DNA of 64,000 nucleotides from Micromonospora profundi. Lineage in GTDB: Bacteria > Actinomycetota > Actinomycetes > Mycobacteriales > Micromonosporaceae. The notes below the pieces were generated by a model. That model did not search any database and was not told the DNA's origin. It saw nothing but the letters and a program-made list of their open reading frames with translations. The stretch covers positions 2,914,001 to 2,978,000 of the forward strand of contig NZ_JAATJK010000001.1 in the NCBI RefSeq assembly GCF_011927785.1, in the 5' to 3' direction. The translations under genes were made by a program, and so were the position numbers. This document shows positions 27,706-45,574 of this stretch, piece by piece (within the stretch, counting starts at the first letter, position 1; each line of letters opens with the position of its first letter).

Positions 27706-29817
27706 CTACACGAGGAGATGCCTGCGGATCAGCCGCTGCTCGATGAAGGTCCGCCAGACCCGGTCGGCGACCGCCGGTTCGACGATCCACAGCCGACGCT
27801 GCGCCTCGGCGAGCGTGAGCGGTGCGGTGAACAGGTCCAGGAACAGCCGGCTGCTGCGGTTAAGGGCGTACACCTGGCCGTCGGCCCGGCGGAACAGGTG
27901 CCGGTCCGCCGGCAGGTCGCCGGGGACGCCGTCCTGCTCGTCGGACCGGATCCGCCGGTACGCCTCGCGGACCTGGTCGTCGTCGTGGTCGACGAAGGTG
28001 CCGTTGGCGAGGAACTCGGTCTCGTCGTCACCGTCGTGCCGGACCCGGTCGTTGGCGAGCACGCCGCGCACCGCTGTGCCGTAGCGGTCGTGGTAGAAGA
28101 ACGTGTGCGGGGTGTCGGTGCTGCCCAGCCACGGCCGGTGGTAGTGCCCGGGGTTGAGGCCCGCCTTGGCCTTGGCGACGTCGTCCTGCGCCGCCTCGGT
28201 CACCGGCTCGTCGTACTGGAGGATCCGGACGATGTCCGAGCCCTCCACCGGCCGCACGTTCGTGATGCCGAACCGCTCCGGTTCCTTCGCGACGATGGCA
28301 CCGGGGGTCAGCATGAAGTCACCGAGGCCGCCGAGGGTCCACAGGTCCGGGTTGTCGCGCAGGAACGTGATGCTGTCCAGCGCCTCTTCGCGGGTCTCGG
28401 TGGGAAAGCCGGTGAAGCCCATCATCTGCACACCGATGTTGGCCTTTGTCATCGCGGTCATGGTGCGCCGTACCTGCTCCGGCTTGGTGCCCTTGTCGAT
28501 CAGGTCGAGGATGCGCTGGTTGCCGGACTCGAAACCGACCGAGATGGCCACGCAACCGCTGCGCCGCAGCAGCTCGCAGCGCTCCTCCGACCAGTACTTC
28601 TCCAGCCGGATCTCCGCGCCCCAGCGGAAGTCCAGCCCCCGCTCGACGGCCTGCTCGGCGAAGCGCAGGATGGTCGCGGGAGCGAGCACGTCCACCGAGA
28701 AGTAGATGAACTTGGCGAACTTCGACAGCTCGGTGACGTCGGCGATCATCGTCTCGACGGTGTCCTGCCGCCACGGGCTGGTGGGGCCGTCGGTGTTCAG
28801 GCCGTAGTCGCAGAACGTGCACTTGTTCCAGTAGCAGCCCCGGGTCGGCGAGTAGTAGACGAACCGCTCCGGGCTGAGGTAGAGGTCCCAGGGCAGGCCG
28901 GAGAAGTCCGGGACCGGCACCTGCGCCAGGCGCTCGTAGCGCAGGGGCAGCTGGCGCTGTCGGCCGTACTTCGGGTGCAGGCGGACGTTGGGGTGCCCGG
29001 CCGGCAGGGTTCCGGCCGCCACGGCGTCCAGCACCTCCGTGTACGCGCTCTCCCCCTCCCCGACCACTATCGCGTCGAAGTCGGCAAGCACCTGGAAGAC
29101 GTACTCGGGTTTGCTTGCGCATTTCCAGACGTCGGAGATCTCCGTGCCGCCCGCGACGAGGAAGACGTCCGGGCAGGCCGCCCGCACGAGTCGGGCGATC
29201 CACAGCGCGAACGGAAGCTGCCACTGATAGGTGGCGCTGATGCCGATCACCTGGTTTCCCCCGGCGGCGAGCCTGGGGATCAGCACGTCCTCGTAGTACG
29301 GCTGGAAGGGCCTGTTGAGGCGGGCGAGCAGCGCCTCGTCGGTAAGCGCGGCCACCGAGCCGATGGACATCATCGGCGGTGGTTGCAGCCTGAAGCCGGC
29401 GCGGAACTGCCCCGGGAACCCGACGGCGCCGAGCGCGTCCATCCAGGAGATCACGCCCTCGACGGCGTCCTGGTAGTGCCCGTAGTCGTAGAACAGGGTC
29501 GGATCCTGGAGCACCCCGATCGACCGGCGCAGCCGCTCCGGGTCGGGGTCGGGCAGGCCGAGCTGGTTCGCCCGGGCCATCAGCGCGTCCGGGCCGCTGA
29601 GGTCGTCGGTCGACAGGCGGGACAGTTCCCGCCGCAGCCACTCGTACGCCGAAGGGGTGTAGGAGTGGTGGAACGCCTCGATGTTGGCGTCGATGATCTC
29701 CGCGGGTCGGTGTCCCTGTGCCCGGGCGTACGAGTCGAGATAGTTCAGGGAGTGGTATCCCGAGGTGGGATCGGTAAGCGGGGGGTAGATCAGTGCCGCC
29801 TTCACCGTGCCGCTCAT
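27706..29817 (-). CDS. Cobalamin-domain radical SAM RiPP maturation enzyme
   Basis: This 703-residue protein has a B12-binding-like N-terminal region (up to about 270, with VFLVAGGTEISD). A radical SAM core follows (about 318-540), whose cluster cysteines Cys328, Cys333 and Cys336 (RGCYWNKCTFC) are spaced CX4CX2C instead of the usual CX3CX2C. The C-terminal 150 residues may bind leader peptide. Family relatives beside NHLP precursors perform C-methylation, epimerisation or related radical chemistry. GAGGAGG precedes the ATG at 29817. It is the last gene of the operon with precursors, YcaO and TfuA. The precise reaction cannot be assigned. Confidence 0.82.
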   Translation of the reverse strand: MSGTVKAALIYPPLTDPTSGYHSLNYLDSYARAQGHRPAEIIDANIEAFHHSYTPSAYEWLRRELSRLSTDDLSGPDALMARANQLGLPDPDPERLRRSIGVLQDPTLFYDYGHYQDAVEGVISWMDALGAVGFPGQFRAGFRLQPPPMMSIGSVAALTDEALLARLNRPFQPYYEDVLIPRLAAGGNQVIGISATYQWQLPFALWIARLVRAACPDVFLVAGGTEISDVWKCASKPEYVFQVLADFDAIVVGEGESAYTEVLDAVAAGTLPAGHPNVRLHPKYGRQRQLPLRYERLAQVPVPDFSGLPWDLYLSPERFVYYSPTRGCYWNKCTFCDYGLNTDGPTSPWRQDTVETMIADVTELSKFAKFIYFSVDVLAPATILRFAEQAVERGLDFRWGAEIRLEKYWSEERCELLRRSGCVAISVGFESGNQRILDLIDKGTKPEQVRRTMTAMTKANIGVQMMGFTGFPTETREEALDSITFLRDNPDLWTLGGLGDFMLTPGAIVAKEPERFGITNVRPVEGSDIVRILQYDEPVTEAAQDDVAKAKAGLNPGHYHRPWLGSTDTPHTFFYHDRYGTAVRGVLANDRVRHDGDDETEFLANGTFVDHDDDQVREAYRRIRSDEQDGVPGDLPADRHLFRRADGQVYALNRSSRLFLDLFTAPLTLAEAQRRLWIVEPAVADRVWRTFIEQRLIRRHLLV

Positions 29818-29827
29818 CGACGCCTCC

Positions 29828-31225
29828 TCAGCTGACCCTGGCCGCGGAACCGGCAAGGTTTTCCTCCTGCGCGCGCTGCGCCACCGCCGGCAGCCGCGGG
29901 GCGCCGAAGGCCTTGACGTACGCCACGAACGGTTCGGCGGCGTACCGGAACGCCGACAGGTCGACGAAGCCCCGGTCCCACGCCGCCGCTTCCAGCCCGT
30001 CCGTGTCGCAGCCCCACAGGCTGGCGAAACACGCGTCGATGACCTCGGTGCGGAAGTGCAGCCGGGCACCCGGACGGCGGTGTCCCGTCGTACGCGGAAC
30101 GACTGTCTCGTTCAGCGACGCGGCGGTCGCGGCGACGTGCCGTGCCGCCGCGAGCAGCGCCGGGGTACGCAGCGGCGCCGCGACCATCCACAGTGCCAGG
30201 CTGCGGTACGGCGTGGTGCCGAACGCCCGCACCAGCATCCGCAGCACCGCCTCGCGATCGTCGAGACCCCGCTCCCGGTCGGTGAGCCAGTCCCAGCCGT
30301 GGGAGGCCGCTGCGGTCAGCCCTCGCTGGCGGGCCACCTCGTGGGCGCGCTCCTCGGCTGTCGGCTCGGCGATGTCGACGTCGGCCAGGCCGGCCAGCAC
30401 GCTGCGTCGATGCCAGGTCGGCGTCTCGGGGTGCAGCAGCATCAGCGCCGCCGCGGCTTCCCGGTCGCTTACCCACTGCCCGCCGACCGACGCCCCGGCG
30501 AACCGTGATCGCCAGCTGTCCATGAAGCGGGTGTGCAGGTTGTCGATCGGCTGGTCGCCGTCGTGCGCCGGGCACAGCTCGGGCGCGTTGTCCGCCGCCA
30601 TCGACAGCAGCAGTCGCGCGTCGGCGCCCTTGGCGTCGGAGGGGTCGCGCCGGTGCCAGGTCAGGAAACGGTCCACCACTGGCGCCGCCTCGGGTGGCGC
30701 GGTGCGCTCCAGCGCGCGGTACGACCGCCGCCGGAAGGGCAATTCCCGGCCGAGGTCCAGCAGCAGCGCGGCTTCGGCGTCGCTGAGCACCCCGTCGGCG
30801 ACAGCGCGGCGCAGCGCCACCCGGATGTTGACAAGCGGCTCGCTCAACGTGCGGTGGCCCTCCTCGGCGGGGCCGTGCACCACTGCCACCTCGTCGTCGC
30901 CGGTGACAACGCCGTCGCGGTAGAGCTGGAACACCTCGCCCACGCCGCGCATCCCGAACGGCCACAGCTCGGCGGCGCGCAGCGCGCCCATGCTGGCCGC
31001 GCCGGCCACTGTCACCCCACTGTCGAGCAGGTCGAGGATCTCCCGGTGGCGTACCGGCGGGTGTTGCAGGAAGAACCCGTCGACGACGAGGACACGGTCG
31101 CCCGGGCCGACGTCCAGGCGGAGCAGGTCGCCGTGCGCGACAGGTGGCAGCACCACGGCGTCGGGCAACAGCCGGGCGACCTCGTCCGCCGGCAGGCTCG
31201 GGCCGATGAAGACGACGTCAGTCAC
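29828..31225 (-). CDS. tfuA: TfuA-family protein, partner of YcaO thioamidation
   Basis: This 465-residue protein begins with the TfuA signature: FIGPSLP, then GVTVAGAASMGALRAAEL with a Gly-rich core, and FGMRGVGEVFQLYRDG (residues about 6-120). TfuA proteins partner YcaO enzymes to install backbone thioamides, as in thioviridamide-type RiPPs and McrA modification, probably by delivering sulfur. The roughly 300-residue C-terminal extension is longer than in minimal TfuA proteins and has no recognised domain. Its GTG start overlaps the YcaO stop by 8 bp, implying coupled translation. It is the strongest sign that this cluster makes thioamides. Confidence 0.8.
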   Translation of the reverse strand: MTDVVFIGPSLPADEVARLLPDAVVLPPVAHGDLLRLDVGPGDRVLVVDGFFLQHPPVRHREILDLLDSGVTVAGAASMGALRAAELWPFGMRGVGEVFQLYRDGVVTGDDEVAVVHGPAEEGHRTLSEPLVNIRVALRRAVADGVLSDAEAALLLDLGRELPFRRRSYRALERTAPPEAAPVVDRFLTWHRRDPSDAKGADARLLLSMAADNAPELCPAHDGDQPIDNLHTRFMDSWRSRFAGASVGGQWVSDREAAAALMLLHPETPTWHRRSVLAGLADVDIAEPTAEERAHEVARQRGLTAAASHGWDWLTDRERGLDDREAVLRMLVRAFGTTPYRSLALWMVAAPLRTPALLAAARHVAATAASLNETVVPRTTGHRRPGARLHFRTEVIDACFASLWGCDTDGLEAAAWDRGFVDLSAFRYAAEPFVAYVKAFGAPRLPAVAQRAQEENLAGSAARVS

Positions 31226-32384
31226 GGGGCACTCCTGGTCGGGTACTCAGGGCCCGCTCGTCGAACATCCGCAGGCCGGGGGCGAACACCTTGCTCACCG
31301 GAATGCCGATCTCGTCGTGCGTCAGGTCGACGCTGAACGGTTCGACGCCGGTGATCCGCTGCACCCGCGCCGCCAGCTCGCGCAGCACCTGGGTCACGTC
31401 GCCGGCCGGCGGGGGGTCCCGGCGGACCGGCCGGACGGGCCGGTCGACGGTGGGCGGCGGCACCGGGGGTGCGCCGACGTCGTGGTACGCGGTGGCGTCG
31501 ATGTCGTCCCGGGCGCCGGAGACCATTACCAGCCGCGACTGGGCAGCCTCCGACATGGCCCGGCCGACGGCGATCTCCGGGTCCAGGTGGCAGCCGAAGC
31601 CACCGAATGTGACAGGCAGGTCCGGCGACCAGATCGAGGCGGCGTAGCAGGGCACGCCGACGGCGTTCGTGATGTCGCAGACCTCCACCCAGCAGCCGGC
31701 CCGCACCAGCGCGTCGTGCACGGTGCGGGTCATCGCGTTCGTGGCGGTGCCCGGGTCGGCGTAGGTGCGCTCGTCCAGCGGCGAGGTGCAGTACGGGGCG
31801 ATGCAGTCCCGTTCGACGACCTCCAGCAGGGCGTGCAGGCTGGCCTCGGCGAAGGTGTTGCCGGTGGCAAGTCCGTTGCTGCTGGGGGTGAACAGGGCGC
31901 GGTCCCAGCCACGCCGGATGGTGAAGTCGAGTTCGATTGTGGCGCGGGGCACCAGGCACCGCGCGCCGGTCAGCAGGCCACGGCCGGCCACCCAGTCGAG
32001 TTCGACGGCGGAGGTCAGGGGCGACCGTTCCGCCAGGTGCAGCCACCGGATGTCGTACGGCAGGTCGAGCGCCTCGGCCGGGGACCGGACGACGGTCCCC
32101 GGCCGGAGGTTCTCGGCATGCCAGGACTCGATGCTCTCCATCACCGCGCTGACCCGGGACTGCGTCGCCGTGGCACCGGTGCCGACGCTCACCGCCATTG
32201 TGGCTCCGACCGGCCGGTAGGCGACGTGCACCGGTAGGCCGATCTCGTCGAGCCGGGTGATGTCGGCGACCCGGGTGATCCGGAACCGGTCGAGCATGCC
32301 ACCGACCCGTTCCCAGGTCTGCTCCACGGTGGCCGTCCGGTAGGTGCCGGATCGGAACGCGATGGTCTCGGTCATGTCAGTCAT
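31218..32384 (-). CDS. YcaO-domain protein (TfuA-associated thioamidation type)
   Basis: This 388-residue protein is a stand-alone YcaO enzyme without an E1-like domain. ATP-binding acidic motifs are visible in SRVSAVMESIESWHAE and EASLHALLEVVERD, the second being the ExxExxERD-type helix. YcaO enzymes phosphorylate backbone amides; TfuA-linked ones use sulfide to form thioamides, while azoline-forming types usually need an E1-like partner. The ATG at 32384 follows GGGAG. The gene lies 27 bp after precursor 1 and overlaps tfuA. An azoline-forming role without TfuA chemistry is the alternative. Confidence 0.83.
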   Translation of the reverse strand: MTDMTETIAFRSGTYRTATVEQTWERVGGMLDRFRITRVADITRLDEIGLPVHVAYRPVGATMAVSVGTGATATQSRVSAVMESIESWHAENLRPGTVVRSPAEALDLPYDIRWLHLAERSPLTSAVELDWVAGRGLLTGARCLVPRATIELDFTIRRGWDRALFTPSSNGLATGNTFAEASLHALLEVVERDCIAPYCTSPLDERTYADPGTATNAMTRTVHDALVRAGCWVEVCDITNAVGVPCYAASIWSPDLPVTFGGFGCHLDPEIAVGRAMSEAAQSRLVMVSGARDDIDATAYHDVGAPPVPPPTVDRPVRPVRRDPPPAGDVTQVLRELAARVQRITGVEPFSVDLTHDEIGIPVSKVFAPGLRMFDERALSTRPGVPRD

Positions 32385-32411
32385 CGAGGCTCCCGGTGGG
32401 GGGTGGGAACG

Positions 32412-32786
32412 TCAGAGGATGAGGACGGCGATGATATTGACGTTGTTGTCGGCGACCGGGGCGACGCCACCGGCGACCGACTCCAGCTCGGCCTCGGTCA
32501 GCTCGTTGAGGTCGACAAGCGGCACCTCGGGTACGTGCAGCACGTGCCGGCCGGGCGTGCCGGCCCAGTCCTCGACGATCTGCTCCTTGGTGTAGAGCGT
32601 GGCGGGCTGGGCGCGGTCGACCTCGACAGTGGCGCCGGCGGCCACCGGCAGGCCTGCGGCGGTCGCGTAGCCGGTCGGGTCGGCGAGGAGGCGTTGCAGT
32701 TCCTCGTCGCTGCGCCACACCGCGGTGACGAGTTCCGAGTACTTGGTCACGAACCTCGCGCCATATTCCTGGTCGTCGTTGCTCAT
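32412..32786 (-). CDS. NHLP-leader RiPP precursor 1, heteroatom-free core
   Basis: This 124-residue precursor has a nitrile-hydratase-alpha-like leader (about 1-90; AVWRSDEELQRLLADP...AGLPV region). A short linker then ends in ELTEAELESVAGG, the double-Gly-type site for C39 peptidases. The expected core is VAPVADNNVNIIAVLIL (residues 108-124), with no Cys, Ser or Thr. Azole or lanthionine chemistry is therefore impossible in the core, whereas backbone thioamides, epimerisation or C-methylation are possible. GAGGAAGG precedes the ATG. A possible internal promoter lies just upstream. The Asn-rich and Ile/Val/Leu-rich core recalls proteusins. Confidence 0.88.
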   Translation of the reverse strand: MSNDDQEYGARFVTKYSELVTAVWRSDEELQRLLADPTGYATAAGLPVAAGATVEVDRAQPATLYTKEQIVEDWAGTPGRHVLHVPEVPLVDLNELTEAELESVAGGVAPVADNNVNIIAVLIL

Positions 32787-32844
32787 CGTTCGGTCCTTCC
32801 TCGGGGGATCGCTGTGGGACGGTCGGTTAATTGCCGTGGTGAGA

Positions 32845-32874
32845 ACGCTAGAAAGATCGAGCTTCGGCAATCAA
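32845..32874 (-). promoter_or_regulatory. Possible promoter ahead of precursor 1
   Basis: Minus strand TTGATT (32874-32869) and TAGCGT (32850-32845) are separated by 18 bp, in the 150-bp gap between the two precursor genes. It could allow precursor 1, YcaO, TfuA and radical SAM to be transcribed separately from precursor 2. Confidence 0.4.
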
Positions 32875-32936
32875 GGATTTGCATCTGACTGCCATCAGAA
32901 TCTGCCGCGCCGGGCCGCAGGCGGCAGACATCGGTG

Positions 32937-33299
32937 TCAGGTGCAGCAGCACGGGCAGCAGCAGGCGCAGCTGGGGTCCAGGCCCGCCACGACGCTGTCC
33001 AACTCGTCCTCGGCCAGCTCCGACTGGGCCACCGGCAACAGCGACGGCACGAAGAGCACGAAGGTGCCGGTGGCGCCCGCGCGTTCCCACGACTCGACCT
33101 GCACCTCCAGGTCAGGGTCGGTGTCGGCGACGTCCCGGACCACCCGCACCTGCACGTCGTCGGGGAGTTGGAGTCCGTAGCTGGCGAGGAACGCCCGGGG
33201 GTCCCGGTCGAGCGCCTGCTCCTTGACGGGGTCGGCCCAGACGTCGGCGACGAGCCGGCTGTACGCGGCCACGAAGACCGCCCGATCCACAGGTGTCAT
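32937..33299 (-). CDS. NHLP-leader RiPP precursor 2, seven-cysteine core
   Basis: This 120-residue precursor has an NHLP leader (ADVWADPVKEQALDRDP then AFLASYGLQLPDDV, matching the nitrile-hydratase-like pattern). Its acidic ELAEDELDSVVAG site resembles that of precursor 1. The likely core is LDPSCACCCPCCCT (residues 107-120), with Cys at 111, 113-115 and 117-119. Such a tail is a typical azole substrate, so the E1/YcaO fusion and SagB dehydrogenase elsewhere in the cluster probably turn several Cys into thiazoles. GAAGGGAG precedes the ATG. It is the first gene after the main promoter. Confidence 0.9.
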   Translation of the reverse strand: MTPVDRAVFVAAYSRLVADVWADPVKEQALDRDPRAFLASYGLQLPDDVQVRVVRDVADTDPDLEVQVESWERAGATGTFVLFVPSLLPVAQSELAEDELDSVVAGLDPSCACCCPCCCT

Positions 33300-33517
33300 G
33301 CCCTGCTCCCTTCGATGGTCGGCCGCCGGCGGCGACTTTCAAAGCGGCGGCGACAGGCAGCGCGGGAGGTTCCGGGCCGCCGATTTCGCTTCATCGTGGG
33401 CCACCTGTCGATCCGGCCCACCCAACGAGTGGGAATTTCATCGAATGTGGCCGCGAAACTGTCGCGCTGCGGCGAAAGCCGGGTAATTGGGAATCAGCGA
33501 CGTACGGCGGATCGAGG

Positions 33518-33546
33518 ATTCTAATGACTCACGTCACCATCGACAA
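33518..33546 (-). promoter_or_regulatory. Strong sigma-70-like promoter of the precursor operon
   Basis: Minus strand TTGTCG (33546-33541), 17 bp, then TAGAAT (33523-33518). It reads towards precursor 2 with a leader of about 210 nt, and backs onto the divergent MerR gene. Bases around 33400-33560 are more AT-rich than their surroundings. Confidence 0.65.
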
Positions 33547-33669
33547 GTAGTAATTCCTCGACTGTCACCCACCCGGTTCTCGCACATACGCTGCGATCGT
33601 CGACCCGCTCACCGCAACGGCGGTTCGACGAGGTGGATGTTCCGTCACCGAGTGCTCCCGGAGGCGACC

Positions 33670-34416
33670 GTGACCATCGACGAGGTGACGACGACGCCCG
33701 GCGGCCCGGCCGGGTACAGCGTGGAGGAACTCGCCCGCAAGGTCGGGATGTCGGCGCGCAACATCCGCGCGCACCAGGCGCGGCGGTTGCTGCCGCCGCC
33801 GGTACGGCACGGCCGGGCCGCGCTCTACGACGACTCGCACGTCCGCCGGCTGGACGCGATCCTCGCCCTGCAACGGCAGGGCTTCAACCTGGTCTCCATC
33901 GAGGCGATGCTCGGGGTCCGGCCCAGCGACGAGGCGCCCGACGGGCTGACCGCGATGCTGCAACGCCTGACCGCCGACCGTCCCGCGTTGGCCCACGCGC
34001 TGACCCGGCACGGCGTGATCGGACGCACCACCGACGGCACGGTCCGCACCGTACGGCCACGCCCGCTGCGCGCCGCCCTGGACCTGCACCGGGTACGGGT
34101 GGGCACGGTGCCGGCGTTGCAGACCCTCAGCGAGGTGCTGGACAGCCTCCGGCCGGTGGCCGACGAGCTGGTCGCCGCCGTCACCGCGCGGCTGCTGGCC
34201 CTGGCGCCGGAGCTCGTACGCAGCGGCGCCCGGTCGTCCTGGGCCGACCTCGACAGGGAAACCCTGCTGCTGACGCAGGGCGTGGTCAGCGTGCTCGCCG
34301 AGGCGTTCCGGCTCGCCGTGGAGAACCAGGCGGAGGCGCACGTCGCGGAGCTGCTGGAGAACCACCTCGACGCGGACGTGTGCCTGGAGGACGGCTCGGT
34401 CATCGACAACGGCTGA
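33670..34416 (+). CDS. MerR-family regulator within the RiPP cluster
   Basis: This roughly 248-residue protein has an N-terminal MerR winged helix (about 15-85; SVEELARKVGMSARNIRAHQARRLLPPP). The long C-terminal helical domain (about 100-245) has no metal-binding Cys. I prefer the GTG at 33670, with GGAGG five bases upstream, over an ATG at 33637. It faces away from the precursor operon and its main promoter, making it the best candidate for direct control of precursor expression. It is convergent with the second ABC transporter gene (stops 7 bp apart), dividing the two minus-strand halves of the cluster. Confidence 0.8.
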   Translation: MTIDEVTTTPGGPAGYSVEELARKVGMSARNIRAHQARRLLPPPVRHGRAALYDDSHVRRLDAILALQRQGFNLVSIEAMLGVRPSDEAPDGLTAMLQRLTADRPALAHALTRHGVIGRTTDGTVRTVRPRPLRAALDLHRVRVGTVPALQTLSEVLDSLRPVADELVAAVTARLLALAPELVRSGARSSWADLDRETLLLTQGVVSVLAEAFRLAVENQAEAHVAELLENHLDADVCLEDGSVIDNG

Positions 34417-34423
34417 CCGTCAG

Positions 34424-37456: not shown

Positions 37457-37481
37457 CAGCGTCTCCTCGGATCGTCGTGGG

Positions 37482-39665
37482 TCAGTGGTCCCGGACCAGG
37501 CGCGCGTACGCCCCGTCCCGGGCGACCAGTTGCTCGTGGGTGCCGCGCTCCACCTCCCGACCGCCGTCCAGCACGACGATCAGGTCGCAGTCGCGGACCG
37601 TGGACAGGCGGTGGGCCACGATGAGGCAGGTCGCCCCCCGACGGCGCAGGTGCATGTCGATCCGGCGTTCGGTCTCGGCGTCCAGCGCGCTTGTGGCCTC
37701 GTCGAGCACCAGCACCCGAGGGTTGCGGACGAGCGCGCGGGCGATTTCCAGCCGCTGCCGCTGCCCACCGGAGAAGTTGCGGGCGTTCTCCCGTACCGGG
37801 CTGGCCAGGCCGCCCGGGCGGGCCGCCACCTCGTCGTACAGACACGCGTCGGTGAGCGCGGTGACGACGTCCTCGTCCGCGACCGTCAGGTCCCACATCG
37901 TGACGTTGTCCCGGACCGTCCCCTCGAACAGCCGCAGGTCCTGGTCCACGATGGCGACGGTGGCCGCCCACAGGCCGTCGTCGGTCCCTGTCCGTTCGAC
38001 GCCGTCGACAGTGACCCGGCCGGTCCACGGGCGGTAGAGCCCGGCGACCAGTCGACCCACAGTCGACTTGCCACTGCCCGAGCGCCCGACGAGCGCCACC
38101 CGGGCACCCGGCGGGAGGTCAAGGCTGAAGTTCTCCAGCAGTGGACGGCCCAGCGGGTTGTAGCCGAAGGTGACCTCCTCGATGCGCAGGTGCCCCTCCA
38201 TGGGCGCCAACGGTCCGGCAGGTCGGTCCTCGGCCGACGGCAGCGGATACTGCTCGACGTCACGCAGCCGGTTGAGGTCGGCGCTCATGTCCTGAAGGCG
38301 CGAGCCCAGCGCTGTCAGGTTGCCCAACGGTCGGTTCATCGCGATGGCCAGGCTCTGCATGCCGACCAGCACGCCGACGCTCATCGCCTCCGCCGCCACC
38401 TGCCGGCTGCCGAGCCCCAGCAGCACCGCGGCGGTCCCCGAGGCGAGGAACGCCGGCAGGACGGAGAGCACCGCCGTGGGCACCCCCAACCGCTGCTGGC
38501 GGCTGGCGACCGTGGCATGGCGGGCCGCGAACCGGGCCACGGCGCGTTCCTCCTCGCCGCCCGCCTTCACCGTCTCGATCATCTGGACAGTGGTGTAGAC
38601 GGTCGTCACCAGCTTGCTGCGGTCCGCCTGGAGCCCGGCGACGGCGATCGAGCGGGTCGAGGCGACATAGCGCAGCACGCTGACGTTCAGACCAGCGAGG
38701 ACCACGGCGCACAGTCCCAGCAGCAGGTCGTACTGGCAGAGCAGCACCCCGTACGCCAGCACCAGCCCGGTGTCGACAACGGTGGTGGCCGCACGGCGGG
38801 TGAGCACCTCGGCGACCACCTCGTTGCCACGGACCCGCTGGCTGAGGTCGGCGGCCTGCCGCTGGTCGAAGAAGGTCGGCGGCAGCCGCAGCAGATGTCG
38901 GAAGAACCGCGCGGCACTGCTCAGGGCGAGCGCCGTCTCCGCGCGTACGGTCAGGCGCTGCTGGAGCAGGCTGGCCAGGAAGGTCAGCACTGTGGCGACA
39001 GCGACCGCCGCCACCAGACCGGCGAGGGCGGCCCGATCCTCCTGCAACAGCACACGGTCGACGAACACCTGGGCCATCACCGGGATGGTCAGACCGACCA
39101 CGGCGATCAGCAGCCCGAGCAGCAGCATCTGCGCGATGGCCGAACCCGGACCGCGCCACCGCTGCGCCAGCGCCCGGAGCAGCCGGTAACGGGTGCCGCC
39201 CGACCGGAACTCCGGACCGGGCTGCATGGTGAGGACGATGCCGGTGAACGCGCCGTCGAACTCCTCCCAGCTCACCGCGCGGGGACCGGTGGCCGGGTCG
39301 TTGATGTGGACCTTCCGGCCGAGCCCTTCCAGCACCACGAAGTGCTCGAAGCGCCAGAACAGCACCGCCGGCAGCGCCACGGTGGCCAGGCCGCCCAGGT
39401 CCATCTGGAAACCCTTTGCCACCATCCCGTACCGGCGGGCGCCCTTGAGGACCGTCGCCGCTGTGGAGCCGTCCCGGCTCACTCCGCACACCCGGCGCAG
39501 CTCCTCCAGGGGCACGTGGCGACCGTGGTGGGCGAGCAGGATCCCGAGCGCGGCGGCGCCGCACTCCACCGCCTCCATCTGGATGACTGTGGGTGTGCGG
39601 ACCCGTCGACGCCGGATCCTGGGCAGCTCCGGTGTGCCGGCGGCGGCGATCGTCGGCGCGCTCAT
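37482..39665 (-). CDS. NHLM-type C39 peptidase/permease/ATP-binding ABC transporter
   Basis: This 727-residue protein has an N-terminal C39 peptidase (about 25-150). Gln29 and Cys35 lie in QMEAVECG, His108 in FEHFVVL and Asp123 in HINDPATG; together they form the expected catalytic set that cuts leaders at double-Gly-like sites. The exporter permease (about 185-460) and ATPase (GRSGSGKST; FSGGQRQR; VLVLDEATSALD) follow. It should process and export both precursors, whose leaders end in AGG or AG. The ATG at 39665 overlaps the HlyD-like stop (ATGA). Confidence 0.92.
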   Translation of the reverse strand: MSAPTIAAAGTPELPRIRRRRVRTPTVIQMEAVECGAAALGILLAHHGRHVPLEELRRVCGVSRDGSTAATVLKGARRYGMVAKGFQMDLGGLATVALPAVLFWRFEHFVVLEGLGRKVHINDPATGPRAVSWEEFDGAFTGIVLTMQPGPEFRSGGTRYRLLRALAQRWRGPGSAIAQMLLLGLLIAVVGLTIPVMAQVFVDRVLLQEDRAALAGLVAAVAVATVLTFLASLLQQRLTVRAETALALSSAARFFRHLLRLPPTFFDQRQAADLSQRVRGNEVVAEVLTRRAATTVVDTGLVLAYGVLLCQYDLLLGLCAVVLAGLNVSVLRYVASTRSIAVAGLQADRSKLVTTVYTTVQMIETVKAGGEEERAVARFAARHATVASRQQRLGVPTAVLSVLPAFLASGTAAVLLGLGSRQVAAEAMSVGVLVGMQSLAIAMNRPLGNLTALGSRLQDMSADLNRLRDVEQYPLPSAEDRPAGPLAPMEGHLRIEEVTFGYNPLGRPLLENFSLDLPPGARVALVGRSGSGKSTVGRLVAGLYRPWTGRVTVDGVERTGTDDGLWAATVAIVDQDLRLFEGTVRDNVTMWDLTVADEDVVTALTDACLYDEVAARPGGLASPVRENARNFSGGQRQRLEIARALVRNPRVLVLDEATSALDAETERRIDMHLRRRGATCLIVAHRLSTVRDCDLIVVLDGGREVERGTHEQLVARDGAYARLVRDH

Positions 39666-40471
39666 CGCCGCAGCAACCAGTCGATGGGGTGCTCCTGGTC
39701 CACCGTGAACCAGGCGGTGACCTCGCTTGCCGAATTGAGCTGGAACGGCGGCGGGGACTTGGTCCAACGCAGTCCGCCCAGGGCTGCCGGGTCGGGTTCC
39801 AGGGCGACAGTCACCCGCACCACGCTGCCGTCGGCCAGCAGCCGCCGGACGTCCGGCCCGGTGCCCAGGAAGGCGCGCAGCGAAGCCTCCGTCTCCGGGA
39901 ACGCGCCGACAGTGATGACCTGGCCGGCCAGGGTGCCGAACACGTTGCGCGGCGCCGCAGCGGCGGCCACCTCGACGGGTACGCCGGGTTGCAGCAGCGG
40001 CGCGGCCACGGCGGGGGCGTAGACGACGGCCTGCAACGCGTCCCCGGCGGTGTCGAGGCGTTCCAGGTCGGCCAGGTGCGTACCCGGGGTGACGATCTCG
40101 CCCTCGGAGACCAGCCAGGCAACGACGTACGCGTCACCCGGCGCGTTCTCCACACGCACCTTGCCGTCCATGGTGCGCAGGCTGTAGAGGGGCGTGCCCT
40201 TTGCCACCCGCTGGTGCGGTGACGCCCACACCTTCGTGACCTGACCGCTGTCGAGCGCGTCGAGTGCGGAGATCCCGTTGGAGTGGATCAGCACGCCGGC
40301 CGCCTCGACGGTCCGCGGGACGACAGTGCGCACCGACCAGACGCCCGCGGCGACGACGACTATGACAAGCGCTGTGGTGGCCAGCCAGTTCGGCACCGTG
40401 GTCAGCCGCACCGCCCGGTCCAGTTGCTCGGGCGCCTCCAACTGGCGCAGCGCCTGCCGCCGGAACTTCAT
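39662..40471 (-). CDS. HlyD-like NHLM secretion accessory protein
   Basis: This 269-residue protein has one N-terminal membrane helix (about 29-50) after a positively charged cytoplasmic tail (KFRRQALRQL). A beta-rich periplasm-side-type domain follows, related to membrane-fusion/HlyD proteins. Such a subunit accompanies NHLM exporters and may couple the transporter to the outer face. Both ends overlap neighbours: the start with the SagB stop and the stop with the peptidase-transporter start (ATGA each). Confidence 0.8.
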   Translation of the reverse strand: MKFRRQALRQLEAPEQLDRAVRLTTVPNWLATTALVIVVVAAGVWSVRTVVPRTVEAAGVLIHSNGISALDALDSGQVTKVWASPHQRVAKGTPLYSLRTMDGKVRVENAPGDAYVVAWLVSEGEIVTPGTHLADLERLDTAGDALQAVVYAPAVAAPLLQPGVPVEVAAAAAPRNVFGTLAGQVITVGAFPETEASLRAFLGTGPDVRRLLADGSVVRVTVALEPDPAALGGLRWTKSPPPFQLNSASEVTAWFTVDQEHPIDWLLRR

Positions 40472-41922
40472 GGCCGGTCCCCCGCTGCGGCGGCGCATCG
40501 CGAACCGAGCAGGAAGTCGGCCACGCTCGGCTCGACCAGAGGGTCGAGCCCGGACAACTCGGCGAACGCCTGGGAGTCCCCGGCGCCGAGGGCGCACGGC
40601 GCCAGGCCCATGGCTGTGGCGACGAGATACATCTGCTGGGTCAGCACACCAGCGTCCTTGAGAATCATGGCGTAGCTCATCCCTTCGTACTTCCACATGA
40701 GCCGCTGGACCCGGGCGGTGACCACCAGGACGATCTGCGGCGGACGGGGCATGGCGCCGGCCGCCCGGGCGTACGCCAGCAGCCGGTCGGCGGCAGCCGC
40801 CCAGGCCGCGACCGGCTCCAGCCGGTGCCCTACCGCGTCGTAGTGGTAGAGCCCCGGGTCGAGCCCGGCGCAGCGGGCGACCAGCGGATAGATCTCCAGC
40901 TCGTAGACCCCGCCGCCGCCCGGGTAGGGGCGGTGGCCGATCTCCTGCCCGCCGGCCTCCCCGACGGCAGTGGTGTGCTGCGACCGGTACAGGAACTCCG
41001 CCAGCCGGTCCAGGGGCAGCGGCGCCGCGTCGTCGTGGTCGCGCACTGTGCGCCGGTCCGCGACGACCTGACTGAACGCGGGGTCCTCCTTGGCGATCGT
41101 CGCCAGGTCCGGCAGCGGCAGCTCGACCGCCCGACCTCCGTCGTACGCGCGGCGCAGCGGTTGCGGGGCGAAACGTCCCCGCATCCGGTAGGTGCCGCCC
41201 ACCGGCAGCGCGTGCCGGCCGGCCCGGGAGCGGTGGTGCAGCCGCAACTCCTCCGGCGACCAGTAGGCAAGTGGCGCGTCGTCGCGTTCCGCCTCGAACT
41301 CGGCGGCGGTGACCAGGATCCGGGCGGTGGCCAACTCGTCGAGCACCCGGCCGGCGGCCTCCGGCGACACGCCGAGCGTGCGGGCCACAGTGTCGGGTCC
41401 GACACCGGGCACGGCGGCGGCAAGCACCGCGCCGACGGCGGCGTCGGCGCAGCCGACGGTGAGGCTGCTCAGCGGTGACGAGGCCACCAGCATGCCCCGT
41501 TCGTGCTGGAGGGTGGCGAAGCGGGAGAGCCGGTATCGGACCCCCGGGGTGTGCGGGCGGCTGTCCGGCAGGCTGCCCCGGCCCAGGCCGGTGGGCACCA
41601 GGTCGAGCAGCGGCCGGTCGTCGGCCTGGACGCGACGCTCCAGCCACGAGTGGGCGAGCAGCCGACGCAGCAGCAACTGCGCCGGCAGCACGCGGTTCTC
41701 CCCCTCCAGCCCGCTGATCAGTCGACCGACCTCGACGTCGCTCACCCAGTCGGCGGCGAGCCGCAGCAGCAGCGCCCGCCGGCCGATGCCGGGCCGCTCC
41801 AGGGTGAGCTGGAAGCGGGTCTGCCGCAGGGTCAGCGAGCCGTCCTCGCCGAGCCGCAGTTCCGCGTCGCGGCGCAGCCGGTACGCGTCCTGGATCGGCG
41901 GACCGCCGACGGAGCCGTTCAC
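40468..41922 (-). CDS. SagB-family FMN azoline dehydrogenase
   Basis: This 484-residue protein has an N-terminal region of about 250 residues of SagB/ThcOx style. A nitroreductase-fold domain follows, with RRTVRDH, RPYPGGGGVYELEIY and KYEGMSYAMILKDAGVLTQQ, motifs that hold FMN and the active site in SagB/McbC enzymes. They oxidise azolines to thiazoles or oxazoles. The GTG start at 41922 overlaps a 13-codon mini-ORF stop as GTGA. A clear ribosome site is lacking at the start itself, so coupling is plausible. Presence with the fused cyclodehydratase implies mature azoles in the product. Confidence 0.87.
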   Translation of the reverse strand: MNGSVGGPPIQDAYRLRRDAELRLGEDGSLTLRQTRFQLTLERPGIGRRALLLRLAADWVSDVEVGRLISGLEGENRVLPAQLLLRRLLAHSWLERRVQADDRPLLDLVPTGLGRGSLPDSRPHTPGVRYRLSRFATLQHERGMLVASSPLSSLTVGCADAAVGAVLAAAVPGVGPDTVARTLGVSPEAAGRVLDELATARILVTAAEFEAERDDAPLAYWSPEELRLHHRSRAGRHALPVGGTYRMRGRFAPQPLRRAYDGGRAVELPLPDLATIAKEDPAFSQVVADRRTVRDHDDAAPLPLDRLAEFLYRSQHTTAVGEAGGQEIGHRPYPGGGGVYELEIYPLVARCAGLDPGLYHYDAVGHRLEPVAAWAAAADRLLAYARAAGAMPRPPQIVLVVTARVQRLMWKYEGMSYAMILKDAGVLTQQMYLVATAMGLAPCALGAGDSQAFAELSGLDPLVEPSVADFLLGSRCAAAAGDRP

Positions 41923-41960
41923 GACTGTCGCCGACCGACCGGGTCCACCACGGTGGTCAT
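41919..41960 (-). CDS. Thirteen-codon mini-ORF coupled to sagB
   Basis: ATG at 41960 opens MTTVVDPVGRRQS and stops at TGA overlapping the sagB GTG (GTGA). GAGAGG lies about seven bases before the ATG. It may drive translational coupling because sagB has no good ribosome site of its own. It may equally be chance. Confidence 0.3.
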   Translation of the reverse strand: MTTVVDPVGRRQS

Positions 41961-41974
41961 CTGCGCACCTCTCG

Positions 41975-44245
41975 CTAGAAGAAGACGTTCAGCGGGTTTG
42001 CCGACGTCTCGTCGGCGGCCAGCGGACTCCGGCCGAGGCGGGCCGGCGCGTCCCACAGCCGACCCGGACCGAGCCGACGCCAGAAGTGCCGCAGGCCGGG
42101 CACGACGACCTTCACCACCGCCAGGTCGACATCGGGGCGGGACTGGTCGACGACGATCACCTCCAGGCCGGCGCGCTCGGCGCGACGTACGCACTCCCGC
42201 ACGTCGTCCCCGACGTCGCCGGTGGTGAGCGTCGGATGGTCCGCGGCGGTGCGCGGCGGCCGGTTCGGGTCGGGAGACAGCCACTGCTGGTCGGCCACCC
42301 GCACGGCGCCGAACCAGCGCTCGGTGTCCAGATCGTCGACGCCGTACCGGTTGCGCGCGGAGGTCGGCCCGGAGACGGCGGGCAGGAACTGGTTCACCTC
42401 GGTGAGCGCCCTGGTCAACGCCACCCGCGCGTCAAGGTGCGCGCCGAAGCCCACCAGGACGTCCTCCGGCCCACCGTCGGTACGCCGGGACACCGCGGCG
42501 AACGCGGGTACGCCGAGGTCGGCGGTCAGGTCCAGGGCCCACAGCTCGCGGCCCAGGGCGGTGGCGTGGTGGTCGACGCAGGCGGCGGTCCACGGATCGC
42601 CGAACGAGGCGAGGTCCACCCCCGGCATGCGCGAGCGGTGGTACCACCACAGGGCCACGCTGTCGCGTTCGACGAGTTCGCAGAAGCCCTGCACGATCGC
42701 CTCGGACAGGGTTCCGCCGGCCGCGCAGCCGTTCGAGTCGGCCGAGCACACCCCGAGGCCGGTCAGCTCCGGATGCCCGTACCAGCAGTACGCGGCGGGC
42801 AGTTCGCGCGGCACCTGCCGGGACAGTGACCAGCCAGTTGTCCAGTCCAGTTCCACGTCGTCCGGCAGCGGGCGGGGAACGCGGTGCAGGTGCCCCAGGT
42901 CGCGGTTGAGCCGGTCCCGGTCGGCGTACTGGCGCTCGGAGAACAGCAGCAACTCCCGCAGGTGCACGGCGCGGTCCGGACCGAGTTGCCGGTACGTGGC
43001 CCGGTGCACCGGGCGGTCGCCGCGCCACACCCCGCAGTAGCGCTCCACTGCCTCCCCGATGGCGCTCATCCGGGCCTGCAGGTCGGTCCGGCCCTTGCCG
43101 CCGCTCTGCCCGCGCAGGTTGCGGCGCAGAGCGGCGAGCTGGCGGGGTTGGGCGAAGTTGTGCCCGGCCGAGTAGGTGTGCGTGACGCCGTTGTCGGTCG
43201 CCTCCAGGGAGGTCAGCCGGCTCACCACGCCCAGGTACCGGCTGACGTGGTGGGCGAGCGCGGCGTACGTCTCGGCGGGTTCCCGGGTGCGGGATTCCCC
43301 GGCGCGGCTGGGTTGGGCGCCGCTGGGTGGCAGATCTATGCGTGGCTCGGCCTTGCCGACGAGGTCCGGGTCGCCGCAGGCGGGGCACTGTGGCTGGCGT
43401 ACCAGTTGGTGGCTCTCGGTGCTCAGGTCCCGGGTGTCCAGGGCGACCATGCGGCCGGTGAGGCGGGGCGAGCTTCCCCGCACGGCCAGCACGGCGAGTT
43501 CGGCGGCGAGCAGCCCGGCGGCCATTGTGGCCAGGCCGGGCAGGACCGCCCGGCCGGGCTGCGGCAGCGCACCGGCCAGGTCCTGCCCGCCGAGGTACGC
43601 GTTCACCTGCTCGTTTTCCTGCCAGCGTTGCCGCAGGCAGGCCCAGCAGCCGGTGCGGCCGGGCACCAGGTGCGGGCCGAGGAAAACGACGTTGCCGTGC
43701 GGCCGGGCGAGGGTCCACGGGCGGCCGGCGGCCAGGTACCTGTCGTTGATCGGGGCAAGCCGGGGGTCGAGCATTGACGACGGCAGCACCAGCAGCTGGG
43801 CGGCGCCCGGGTCGCTGTCGTCCGGCCCGACCACCGTCACGGCGAGCCCGAGTGCGCGCAGCGCGTCGGCGGTCTCGGCCGCCCGGGGTGCCCCGAGGTC
43901 GACGATTGTCACCGGCCCTCCGGCCATCCACCGCCGCCCGGCCTCGGGCGCAACACCCCGGGCGTCCCAGCCGGCGGCCTCGGCCGGCGAGGTGTGCGCG
44001 GGACCGGACACCAGCAGGCCGTGGTCGCGCAGCCGGGCGAGGGCTGCCGCGACGGCGGCGACCGGATGGCGGGTGGCCAGTCGGGCCAGCACGTCGGCAA
44101 GAGGCGCGGCGCCGTCGAGCTGGTCGGCCAGGTCGGCGGCGACCGGGTCGTCGACGAGCAGGCTGCGGGTCTCCCCCAGCACCACGAGCGGCCCGTCGGG
44201 CAGCCGCACCGGCACGTAGTCCGATCGGAAGCGCGGACGCCACAT
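41975..44245 (-). CDS. Fused E1-like / YcaO azoline cyclodehydratase
   Basis: This 756-residue protein joins an E1-like/leader-binding half (about 1-320) to a YcaO half. The first half has a structural zinc site of two CxxC pairs (Cys200/203 in GCWACLRQR and Cys287/290 in CPACGDP). The second shows MSAIGEAVERYCG and SEAIVQGFCELVERD. Fused enzymes of this kind recognise leader peptides and convert Cys/Ser/Thr to azolines using ATP. The C-terminus reads ANPLNVFF and lacks the Pro-rich PxPxP end of many family members. The start at 44245 follows GGGAGGAACC. It is first in the azole and export operon. Confidence 0.88.
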   Translation of the reverse strand: MWRPRFRSDYVPVRLPDGPLVVLGETRSLLVDDPVAADLADQLDGAAPLADVLARLATRHPVAAVAAALARLRDHGLLVSGPAHTSPAEAAGWDARGVAPEAGRRWMAGGPVTIVDLGAPRAAETADALRALGLAVTVVGPDDSDPGAAQLLVLPSSMLDPRLAPINDRYLAAGRPWTLARPHGNVVFLGPHLVPGRTGCWACLRQRWQENEQVNAYLGGQDLAGALPQPGRAVLPGLATMAAGLLAAELAVLAVRGSSPRLTGRMVALDTRDLSTESHQLVRQPQCPACGDPDLVGKAEPRIDLPPSGAQPSRAGESRTREPAETYAALAHHVSRYLGVVSRLTSLEATDNGVTHTYSAGHNFAQPRQLAALRRNLRGQSGGKGRTDLQARMSAIGEAVERYCGVWRGDRPVHRATYRQLGPDRAVHLRELLLFSERQYADRDRLNRDLGHLHRVPRPLPDDVELDWTTGWSLSRQVPRELPAAYCWYGHPELTGLGVCSADSNGCAAGGTLSEAIVQGFCELVERDSVALWWYHRSRMPGVDLASFGDPWTAACVDHHATALGRELWALDLTADLGVPAFAAVSRRTDGGPEDVLVGFGAHLDARVALTRALTEVNQFLPAVSGPTSARNRYGVDDLDTERWFGAVRVADQQWLSPDPNRPPRTAADHPTLTTGDVGDDVRECVRRAERAGLEVIVVDQSRPDVDLAVVKVVVPGLRHFWRRLGPGRLWDAPARLGRSPLAADETSANPLNVFF

Positions 44246-44394
44246 GGTTCCTCCCGAGCCTGGTGGCCGGGCCGCGGCACCGCCGGCACCGCCGGCGATC
44301 ACGGCTACTGCCATCGTCGTGGTCCCCGGGCCCGATCCCGAGTGATGCCACAGGTTTCTGCCGTCGGCGACGCCGGAGGCGTCCGGCGGTCCGG

Positions 44395-45423
44395 TCAGCT
44401 AGGGGTGACTGCCAGCGCGGTGTCGTTGAGCCCCAGCACCGAGGCTCCGGTGGTCTGCGCCGGTACGAGCAACAGGAAGGTCTCCACCCTGGTGACCCGG
44501 ATCGACTTCCCGCGCACCGCCTCGCGGTGGCCGGTGGCGATGAGGTCCGGGCTCTGCGGCACCAACTGGACGGTGGCCGGGCCGCCGGGCGCCGGGCGCA
44601 ACGTGTCGGTGGCGTGGATCGTCAGGAAGGTCAGCGTGCCGGCCGGCACCGCTACCGCGCAGTCCGACCACTCGGCCTTGTCCAGGGTGCGCTGGACCGC
44701 CGCGCCGACACCGGCGAGTTGCTGACCGTAGACCTCCCAGCCGCCGGCGAACTGGCCGTCGAGCAACGGGCTCGACACGACGAGGGACCTGTTGCTGGTC
44801 GTGGATCCGATGCTGCGGGCGAACACCTCGGCGGCGAGGGCACGGCGGCTGGTCTCGTCCAGGGCCTCGCCGCCCTCGGTGGCCGGCCGGCCGTCGATGC
44901 TGCGGGCGACCACCAGCGACGGTTGGGTGACCTGGACGTTGTGGCTGAGCTTCCAGTGGCCGTCGGCGTCGAGCACGAACTGGCTGACGTCGGTGGGGGC
45001 GAGCTCGGAGCCGGCCAGCTTGAGGGTGGCGGTGGCAAGGAAGCAGGCCGGGTCGCCGGGCGGCACCGCGAAGGCCGGGTTGATGTGCTGGAACGACGGT
45101 TGCGGGCGCTGGTTGTAGGCGGACCGGCGGACCGCGGCGATGCTGAGGTCCAGCGCGGGGGGCACCTCCTGGGTTTTCAGCGCCTCGACGTCGCCGGCCA
45201 CCGAGGCGGCCGAGTCGGCCTGGTCGAAGGCGGTGAGCACCAACGCTGCCCGGTCCCGACCGAAGGCGGTCGAGCCGTCGGGCACCGGGGTGGCCGCGTC
45301 CACCGGCTCGCCACCACAGCCGGTCAACACGAGCAGCGCGGCCACCGCAGCGGTGGCGAACGGCATCGCTGGCGCCGGCGCGGCGAGGATACGCGGGCTC
45401 CTGACGGATTTTCTGCCCAGCAT
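44395..45423 (-). CDS. Lipoprotein of unknown function at the cluster edge
   Basis: This 342-residue protein carries a basic N-terminus, a hydrophobic segment and a lipobox (LVLTGCGG), predicting a membrane-anchored extracytoplasmic lipoprotein. The rest is beta-rich without recognised motifs. The ATG at 45423 has GGAGG upstream. It is 150 bp upstream of the cyclodehydratase in the same direction, so it may belong to the cluster as an immunity or binding protein; that is only positional inference. Confidence 0.6.
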   Translation of the reverse strand: MLGRKSVRSPRILAAPAPAMPFATAAVAALLVLTGCGGEPVDAATPVPDGSTAFGRDRAALVLTAFDQADSAASVAGDVEALKTQEVPPALDLSIAAVRRSAYNQRPQPSFQHINPAFAVPPGDPACFLATATLKLAGSELAPTDVSQFVLDADGHWKLSHNVQVTQPSLVVARSIDGRPATEGGEALDETSRRALAAEVFARSIGSTTSNRSLVVSSPLLDGQFAGGWEVYGQQLAGVGAAVQRTLDKAEWSDCAVAVPAGTLTFLTIHATDTLRPAPGGPATVQLVPQSPDLIATGHREAVRGKSIRVTRVETFLLLVPAQTTGASVLGLNDTALAVTPS

Positions 45424-45574
45424 CTCGTCCTCCATCCACCACCGGTGCACGGGAATCGCGCCCGATGGAGTCGAGTATGTGAGCGGTCAACGGGCCAGGC
45501 CGGTGGCGGCGCGGCCTCGTGCTGCACGGCCCGTCGGCGTTGCAGGAAACGACGTCATCCGGCCCGGGCCGTGG

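What the first reader, a model, noticed from the sequence alone, without database searches (positions are those of the whole stretch)
27706..45423. Hybrid RiPP cluster combining azole, thioamide and cobalamin-radical machinery on two NHLP-leader precursors
The cluster has two NHLP-type precursors, an E1/YcaO fusion plus SagB (azole route), a separate YcaO overlapping TfuA (thioamide route), a B12-domain radical SAM enzyme, and the complete NHLM export set. Single NHLP clusters usually use one of these chemistries. Having both YcaO routes plus radical SAM chemistry in one locus may define a new hybrid RiPP class. Enzyme families are seen in sequence; the shared pathway is inference.
Basis: partly seen in the sequence, partly recalled or inferred. 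Interest (0 to 1): 0.92.

Follow-up and report, generated by a model that had tools for sequence, protein, structure and literature searches.

The report
Two-peptide azole and thioamide RiPP cluster
A soil actinomycete (Micromonospora) carries one stable gene cluster that appears to make two different modified peptides, one with an almost unchanging run of cysteines and one with a changeable tail, each with its own enzymes but sharing one export machine.

Summary
It is one cluster. 'Hybrid' needs correcting: the evidence favours two products. Precursor A has a nearly frozen core (ACCCPCC[C/S]T, 37 of 37; dN/dS 0.09); precursor B has a changeable Asn/Val-rich core, without Cys/Ser/Thr in 24 of 27 Micromonospora but only 1 of 10 others. 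A Streptosporangiaceae MAG keeps B, YcaO, TfuA, radical SAM and exporter with no detected A or E1/YcaO, pointing the thioamide/radical-SAM half to B. Chemistry is inferred from homology; no product was seen. Clusters joining azole and thioamide genes are in print; this constant/variable pair was not found in ten open-access text searches. New variant of a known kind.

The parts
27706..29817 (-). Cobalamin-type radical SAM enzyme (703 aa), CX4CX2C motif; C-terminal beta-beta-alpha-alpha-alpha element, possibly a leader-binding (RRE-like) domain (untested)
   Evidence: PF04055; NCBIfam rSAM_ocin_1 76.4 bits, below its cut-off 281.85; fold aligns with OxsB, TsrM, TokK, CysS, AprD4, MgmA; model mean pLDDT only 62
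29828..31225 (-). TfuA, sulfur-delivery partner of the thioamide YcaO (role by homology); long C-terminal extension
   Evidence: PF07812 E 4.7e-44; residues 4-207 match solved TfuA 6xp8
31218..32384 (-). YcaO of thioamide type, overlaps TfuA by 8 nt
   Evidence: TIGR03266 176.8 bits (cut-off 365) against SagD-type TIGR03604 110.4 bits; nearest solved structure by sequence MJ1094
32412..32786 (-). Precursor B (124 aa), NHLP-like leader, predicted core VAPVADNNVNIIAVLIL
   Evidence: TIGR03793 E 6.2e-5, below cut-off; found in 37 of 37 clusters with variable core
32937..33299 (-). Precursor A (120 aa), NHLP-like leader, predicted core LDPSCACCCPCCCT
   Evidence: TIGR03793 E 1.8e-8, below cut-off; ACCCPCC[C/S]T in 37 of 37
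33487..34416 (+). MerR-family regulator (start uncertain within this frame)
   Evidence: PF13411 E 6.9e-15; found in 36 of 37 clusters, the missing one (L179) ending at a contig end on that side
34424..37456 (-). NHLM exporter ABC2 (permease/ATPase)
   Evidence: TIGR03797 685.6 bits, cut-off 709.4
37482..39767 (-). NHLM exporter ABC1 with C39 leader peptidase (start uncertain)
   Evidence: TIGR03796 893.3 bits, over cut-off; PF03412
39662..40495 (-). NHLM HlyD-type adaptor (start uncertain)
   Evidence: TIGR03794 E 5.6e-37, below cut-off
40468..41922 (-). SagB/ThcOx-type azoline dehydrogenase
   Evidence: TIGR03605 166.7 bits, over cut-off; residues 18-474 of 484 match cyanobactin oxidase CyaGox 5lq4
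41975..44314 (-). E1-like/YcaO fusion cyclodehydratase with two CxxC pairs
   Evidence: TIGR03882 and TIGR03604 over cut-off; residues 43-775 of 779 match LynD, 45-775 TruD; CxxC..CxxC pattern in 37 of 37
44395..45450 (-). Lipoprotein (lipobox LTGC) of unknown function, candidate self-protection or product-binding protein (start uncertain)
   Evidence: no Pfam family; Gly-Cys of the lipobox invariant in 15 aligned; found in 36 of 37, the missing one (L050) cut by a contig end
45575..48457 (-). LuxR-type AAA regulator at the outer border (Micromonospora clusters; weak partial matches in three others)
   Evidence: PF13191 and PF00196; partial coverage in 25 of 26 Micromonospora loci; 41-45% partial matches in L185-L187

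Best explanation
It is one RiPP cluster that makes two peptides by two routes. (1) Shown by sequence: two divergent precursors with NHLP-like leaders, two enzyme sets and one exporter are conserved as a unit. (2) Inferred: the LynD-like E1/YcaO fusion binds the leader of precursor A and cyclises its Cys residues; the ThcOx-like SagB oxidises them to thiazoles, giving a polythiazole peptide built on CCC-P-CCC. (3) Inferred, supported by a natural gene loss: YcaO/TfuA install one or more backbone thioamides in precursor B, and the cobalamin radical SAM enzyme modifies the same peptide, most simply by methylating an unactivated carbon in its Asn/Val/Ile-rich core. (4) Inferred: the C39 peptidase of NHLM ABC1 cuts both leaders at the AG/GG site and the NHLM complex exports both products. 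The near-invariance of core A and the changeability of core B suggest a constant partner and a variable partner; whether they act together is not known.
For: Unity: the TfuA and E1/YcaO orthologues occur in the same 27 of 160 genus genomes; 37 of 37 family genomes with radical SAM at 61% or more have precursors A and B, TfuA, YcaO, E1/YcaO and SagB; the azole/export block is inverted as a whole in 4 of 37 yet still linked; sequence adjoining the cluster is not shared among the five Micromonospora genomes compared; distance matrices of TfuA and E1/YcaO correlate at 0.993, 0.919 within Micromonospora. Two substrates: core A is ACCCPCC[C/S]T in 37 of 37, core B has no Cys/Ser/Thr in 24 of 27 Micromonospora; dN/dS core against leader is 0.089/0.276 for A and 0.347/0.154 for B. 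Assignment of the thioamide + radical-SAM half to B: Streptosporangiaceae MAG G162 has YcaO, B and TfuA in a row and NHLM genes on one contig, and a 59% radical SAM that starts 128 nt from the end of another contig, with no match to A and no E1/YcaO orthologue. In G029 a 58% radical SAM relative sits with YcaO/TfuA, with no NHLM or azole match in the 20 kb fetched. Chemistry type: E1/YcaO matches LynD and TruD over nearly its whole length, SagB matches CyaGox, and the other YcaO scores higher as McrA thioamidation type than as SagD type.
Against: No product or enzyme activity was observed. Both precursor genes sit in the thioamide gene run, 150 nt apart, and their leaders are related (31-39% identity in the cross-matches), so cross-recognition is possible. 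In 9 of 10 non-Micromonospora clusters core B does hold Cys, Ser or Thr, so azole formation on B is not excluded there. The MAG may be incomplete, its TfuA is cut by the contig end, and the join of its two contigs is inferred. The radical-SAM motif CX4CX2C differs from the CX7CX2C described for polytheonamide and bottromycin methyltransferases (PMC5682303, passages), so methylation is a guess by family. The 37 genomes are related, so they are not independent observations, and the 61% line was drawn after seeing the data: just below it G169 (58-60%, broken frames) and G029 (58%) lack the azole half.
Confidence: 0.68

Rival explanations
1. True hybrid: one or both precursors receive azole, thioamide and radical-SAM modifications on the same molecule.
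For: Thiopeptides with thioamides (saalfelduracin, thiopeptin, Sch 18640) join both chemistries in one compound (PMC8120280 section 13). The A gene lies in the thioamide gene run. The thioamide YcaO/TfuA could act on a Cys-rich core too.
Against: Core B lacks cyclisable residues in 24 of 27 Micromonospora; no A and no E1/YcaO orthologue were found in the MAG that keeps B, TfuA, YcaO and radical SAM.
Confidence: 0.2
2. Two unrelated RiPP clusters that happen to be neighbours.
For: E1/YcaO relatives (39-42%) without TfuA in 12 of 12 fetched loci, and TfuA relatives without this azole half, exist separately in the same genus.
Against: 37 of 37 clusters keep both halves through relocation, inversion and mean protein distances of 0.31-0.53 outside Micromonospora-only pairs. 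G188 keeps a fragment of A and what I read as a fragment of B, with no E1/YcaO match and no radical-SAM orthologue in the genome; TfuA was not searched there.
Confidence: 0.03
3. The poly-Cys core of precursor A is not turned into azoles but serves as a metal ligand, thiol donor or carrier, for example handing sulfur to, or acting as a cofactor for, the other product.
For: The core is nearly frozen (dN/dS 0.089) and almost pure Cys, unlike the hypervariable cores described for NHLP precursors (PMC2887384, passages).
Against: E1/YcaO and SagB, both over their curated cut-offs, are conserved with it and would need a Cys/Ser/Thr-bearing substrate; in most Micromonospora clusters no other precursor core offers one.
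Confidence: 0.08

Closest known systems
NHLP clusters of TOMM type (Haft 2010, PMC2887384; Cox 2015, PMC4603692; passages of both)
   Same: NHLP-like leader, Gly-Gly type cleavage site, fused cyclodehydratase-YcaO, dehydrogenase, three-gene exporter; tandem precursors possibly forming a two-peptide product are mentioned for the NHLP-Burk group
   Different: adds a YcaO/TfuA + B12 radical SAM gene run with its own precursor; core A is nearly invariant where NHLP cores are described as hypervariable
Dehydrazole-type cluster of Nakamurella (PMC10676384, passages)
   Same: a second YcaO next to TfuA in a cluster that also has an azole-type YcaO; the same paper describes a dehydrazole precursor with an NHLP leader and a Cys-rich C-terminus in another strain
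   Different: paired with a LanM-type dehydratase; the passage describes one precursor with adjacent Ala residues and does not state its leader type; a B12 radical SAM was not mentioned in the passages seen
TfuA-associated clusters with added azole genes (PMC8120280, section 13) and Network 7 of RiPPER (PMC6511847, section 18)
   Same: YcaO/TfuA with fused YcaO-cyclodehydratase and dehydrogenase; B12 radical SAM in others; nitrile-hydratase-type precursors with TfuA in Network 7
   Different: Micromonospora is not named in either main text; I could not see their supplementary clusters, so identity with one of them is not excluded
Thioamide thiopeptides (saalfelduracin, thiopeptin, Sch 18640)
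   Same: azole and thioamide chemistry in one pathway
   Different: need split dehydratases and a (4+2) cycloaddition enzyme (PMC8120280, section 13), none of which was seen among the genes annotated here
Methyl-coenzyme M reductase modification
   Same: YcaO/TfuA-type thioamidation (NCBIfam hits), and an MCR glutamine methylase among the radical-SAM fold matches (MgmA)
   Different: acts on a folded archaeal enzyme, not on a RiPP precursor

Membership tests
NHLP/NHLM RiPP (proteusin-like) | NHLP-type leader | tested here: inconclusive
   TIGR03793 significant for A (E 1.8e-8) and weak for B (6.2e-5), both below the curated cut-off of 50.9 bits
NHLP/NHLM RiPP (proteusin-like) | Gly-Gly type leader end before the core | tested here: met
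   VAG or VGG in 37 of 37 A; AGG or AAG in 34 of 37 B; in three B (L180, L181, L194) the site reads AAA or AAV
NHLP/NHLM RiPP (proteusin-like) | Three-gene exporter with C39 peptidase | tested here: met
   TIGR03796 over cut-off; TIGR03797 and TIGR03794 strong but below theirs
Linear azole peptide / TOMM | Cyclodehydratase with YcaO plus E1-like domain | tested here: met
   TIGR03882 116.9 against 36.9, TIGR03604 259 against 219.25
Linear azole peptide / TOMM | FMN dehydrogenase (SagB) | tested here: met
   TIGR03605 166.7 against 78.4 bits
Linear azole peptide / TOMM | Azoles in the product | not testable with these tools
   needs mass spectrometry
Thioamidated RiPP | YcaO gene adjacent to TfuA | tested here: met
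   8-nt overlap; PF07812 and PF02624 over cut-off
Thioamidated RiPP | Backbone thioamide in the product | not testable with these tools
   needs mass spectrometry
PoyC/bottromycin-type B12 radical SAM C-methyltransferase | CX7CX2C motif (PMC5682303, passages) | tested here: not met
   CX4CX2C, Cys invariant in the 10 aligned
PoyC/bottromycin-type B12 radical SAM C-methyltransferase | NCBIfam RiPP C-methyltransferase model TIGR03975 | tested here: not met
   76.4 bits against cut-off 281.85
Cobalamin-dependent radical SAM enzyme | B12 domain followed by radical SAM barrel | tested here: met
Two-peptide bacteriocin | Two precursors encoded together in the cluster | tested here: met
   A and B both in 37 of 37; outside that set the MAG and decayed G169 show B only
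Two-peptide bacteriocin | Synergy of the two products | not testable with these tools
   needs bioassay

The most novel reading that the evidence does not exclude
A two-component RiPP in which a nearly invariant polythiazole peptide (CCC-P-CCC) and a rapidly changing thioamidated, radical-SAM-modified peptide are made by separate enzyme sets, co-exported, and act as a pair: a constant effector with a variable specificity partner.
Probability: 0.33. Interest if true: 0.82.

Novelty: new variant of a known kind. Interest (0 to 1): 0.62.

Why it matters
If right, it is a natural case where two unrelated backbone chemistries are kept together for two distinct peptides, with opposite selection on the two cores. 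That makes a specific prediction (two products, one constant, one variable) that one deletion per half and mass spectrometry can test. The thioamide-only relative and the intact clusters give ready comparisons, and the invariant CCC-P-CC core points to a conserved target or role worth finding.

Tried and rejected
Two-cluster hypothesis: rejected on co-occurrence, rearrangement and relocation. Core A as a marker of other class members: an exact DNA pattern for the core matched 7 of 394 class genomes, two being true precursors (own and G085) and five in unrelated reading frames. Radical SAM beyond the family: 2 of 394 class genomes at E 1e-60, both Micromonospora. Partial relatives: G169 keeps B, TfuA, YcaO and SagB but I found no A and no E1/YcaO orthologue, and several frames are broken, so I did not count it as a working thioamide-only cluster; G188 holds only a fragment near a contig end. 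A Chloroflexi MAG contig (L177) has TfuA, YcaO, SagB, E1/YcaO and NHLM ABC matches but no precursor I could recognise and no radical SAM match. Distant TfuA places in the genus: 14 of 21 fetched; four of the 14 (L063, L064, L067, L069) show a SagB-like or second YcaO match nearby, so azole/thioamide neighbourhood is not unique to this family. PHROGs gave nothing for either precursor. Flank comparison: besides the rest of the LuxR gene, only scattered matches were found (one of 873 nt at 86%, one of 411 nt at 71%, three of 388-1323 nt at 71-75% against the window flanks; one of 305 nt among the others), none adjoining the cluster (nucleotide search, 300 nt or more). The lipoprotein has no Pfam relative and no significant PDB relative (best E 0.72), and its structure job had not finished. 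The C-terminal radical-SAM element was not folded or searched alone; no RRE match is claimed. Rows dropped: L187 from the lipoprotein alignment. The L179 'ABC2' entry is a cross-match to ABC1, as the contig ends there; the E1/YcaO of L050 is cut by a contig end and that of G127 is in two pieces. The radical-SAM motif count (32 of 37) is low because the loci of 9 non-Micromonospora clusters hold only part of that gene. dN/dS of B used 26 of 27 sequences (equal length only).
Full report
What is there. On the minus strand the window holds two gene runs in the same direction. The first reads preA, preB, YcaO, TfuA, radical SAM (33299 down to 27706), with gaps of 150, 27, -8 and 10 nt. The second reads LuxR-type regulator, lipoprotein, E1/YcaO, SagB, HlyD, ABC1, ABC2 (48457 down to 34424). 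A MerR-type gene lies between them on the plus strand. Families were assigned with Pfam and NCBIfam. The radical SAM enzyme most likely starts at 29817, by conservation. The genome has six YcaO genes, two of them here. The genus is Micromonospora: contigs of same-genus genomes G011, G015, G035 and G070 have the lengths of named Micromonospora contigs in the genome scan.

Is it one cluster? In 160 genus genomes, own included, the TfuA orthologue (77% identity or more) is found in 27 and the E1/YcaO orthologue (81% or more) in the same 27. Fetching the 26 other loci showed the same genes in one order and orientation, with one locus (L050) cut by its contig. In 354 family genomes the radical SAM gene matched 43 at E 1e-40. 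Of these, 37 have it at 61% or more and carry both halves: 27 Micromonospora, 9 of a second genus and 1 of a third. I drew that line after seeing the list. The other six do not carry both halves: G029 (58%) and G174 (30%) have radical SAM with TfuA/YcaO and no NHLM or azole half in the 20 kb fetched, G169 (58-60%, in two pieces) is a decayed cluster, and G165, G200 and G296 show only a distant radical SAM. Precursor A was found in those same 37; besides them, G169 gave only its precursor B, and G188 a fragment.

The unit survives rearrangement. In 33 of 37 the two runs are collinear; in 4 of 37 the azole/export run is inverted as a block (in L179 the contig end cuts ABC2 and MerR). In five Micromonospora genomes compared, sequence adjoining radical SAM and LuxR was not shared, apart from a few scattered matches further out, so the unit sits at different sites. 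Distances of TfuA and E1/YcaO correlate at r=0.993 over 37 taxa and 0.919 inside Micromonospora. Shared ancestry alone gives such correlation, so this shows no sign of module swapping rather than interaction.

Which enzyme acts on which peptide? Predicted core A reads ACCCPCC[C/S]T in all 37 (8 distinct cores); core B has 22 distinct versions rich in Asn and aliphatics. Of 49 precursor A homologues that I printed (56 found), 48 carry a CCCPCC[C/S] core, the exception being the frame-broken P0012; named sources include Solwaraspora, Jatrophihabitans, Actinoplanes and Dactylosporangium. Within Micromonospora, dN/dS is 0.276 in leader A and 0.089 in core A, against 0.154 in leader B and 0.347 in core B (27 of 27 A and 26 of 27 B sequences, pairwise counts not corrected for relatedness). 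Core B lacks Cys, Ser and Thr in 24 of 27 Micromonospora but in only 1 of 10 others. Three clusters (L185, L186, L187) have an extra B-like precursor, again suggesting that B is the changeable one.

A natural gene loss helps. In a Streptosporangiaceae MAG, YcaO (51%), B (43%) and TfuA (52%) lie in a row next to NHLM genes on one contig; that contig ends within or just after TfuA, whose match reaches residue 353 of 465. A 59% radical SAM starts 128 nt from the end of another contig. The assembly has no match to A and its only E1/YcaO match is the thioamide YcaO itself. So B, TfuA, YcaO, radical SAM and exporter seem able to stand without A and the azole genes. Being a MAG, absence is weaker than in a closed genome.

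Chemistry. E1/YcaO matches the cyanobactin heterocyclases LynD and TruD over nearly its whole length, and MusD in part, and SagB the cyanobactin oxidase CyaGox, in line with the published grouping of NHLP and cyanobactin YcaO proteins (PMC4603692, passages). The second YcaO scores best as a thioamidation type among the specific models, though below that model's cut-off, and PMC13063428 (passages) describes TfuA as the hydrolase that helps deliver sulfide equivalents. The radical SAM model has the cobalamin radical-SAM fold but low confidence (mean pLDDT 62), and its motif and model score keep it out of the PoyC-type methyltransferase family. Methylation is therefore a guess.

Comparison with print. 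Ten searches of the open-access library listed no paper that I recognised as describing this two-precursor arrangement; I opened passages or sections of eight papers. They do report azole genes with YcaO/TfuA, thioamide thiopeptides and B12 radical SAM with YcaO/TfuA (PMC8120280, section 13 read), a second YcaO/TfuA in a dehydrazole-type Nakamurella cluster (PMC10676384, passages), and nitrile-hydratase-type precursors with TfuA in Actinobacteria (PMC6511847, section 18 read). The library lacks most subscription journals, and supplements were not open to me.

Verdict. A real, conserved, single cluster; most likely two products with separate chemistries rather than one hybrid molecule. Interest comes from the constant/variable pair of cores and its direct testability.

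Noticed in passing
44395-45450: Lipoprotein with no Pfam or significant PDB relative, encoded next to E1/YcaO in 36 of 37 clusters (the other is cut by its contig); possible immunity or product-binding protein.
   Followed up: partly
L185, L186, L187 (G189, G226, G213): A third NHLP-type precursor, B-like, lies between B and YcaO.
   Followed up: partly
L177 (Chloroflexi MAG contig): TfuA, YcaO, SagB, E1/YcaO and NHLM ABC matches together outside Actinobacteria; E1/YcaO is interrupted and no precursor was recognised.
   Followed up: partly
L188 (G029): 57% radical SAM relative with YcaO/TfuA, a PrmA/PRMT-like methyltransferase and a papain-like protease, without NHLM or azole matches: a possible different thioamide RiPP.
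   Followed up: no
G000 contig 1, 3127166-3129099 and 3685343-3687714 (outside the window): Further YcaO loci of this genome: one with a second TfuA, one with two convergent YcaO genes.
   Followed up: no
57532-59016: One frame joins a BTAD-type regulator with a thioesterase-like (4HBT) domain.
   Followed up: no
27706-29817, C-terminal 70 residues: Predicted beta-beta-alpha-alpha-alpha arrangement resembling a precursor-binding RRE; resemblance from predicted secondary structure only, RRE layout recalled.
   Followed up: no
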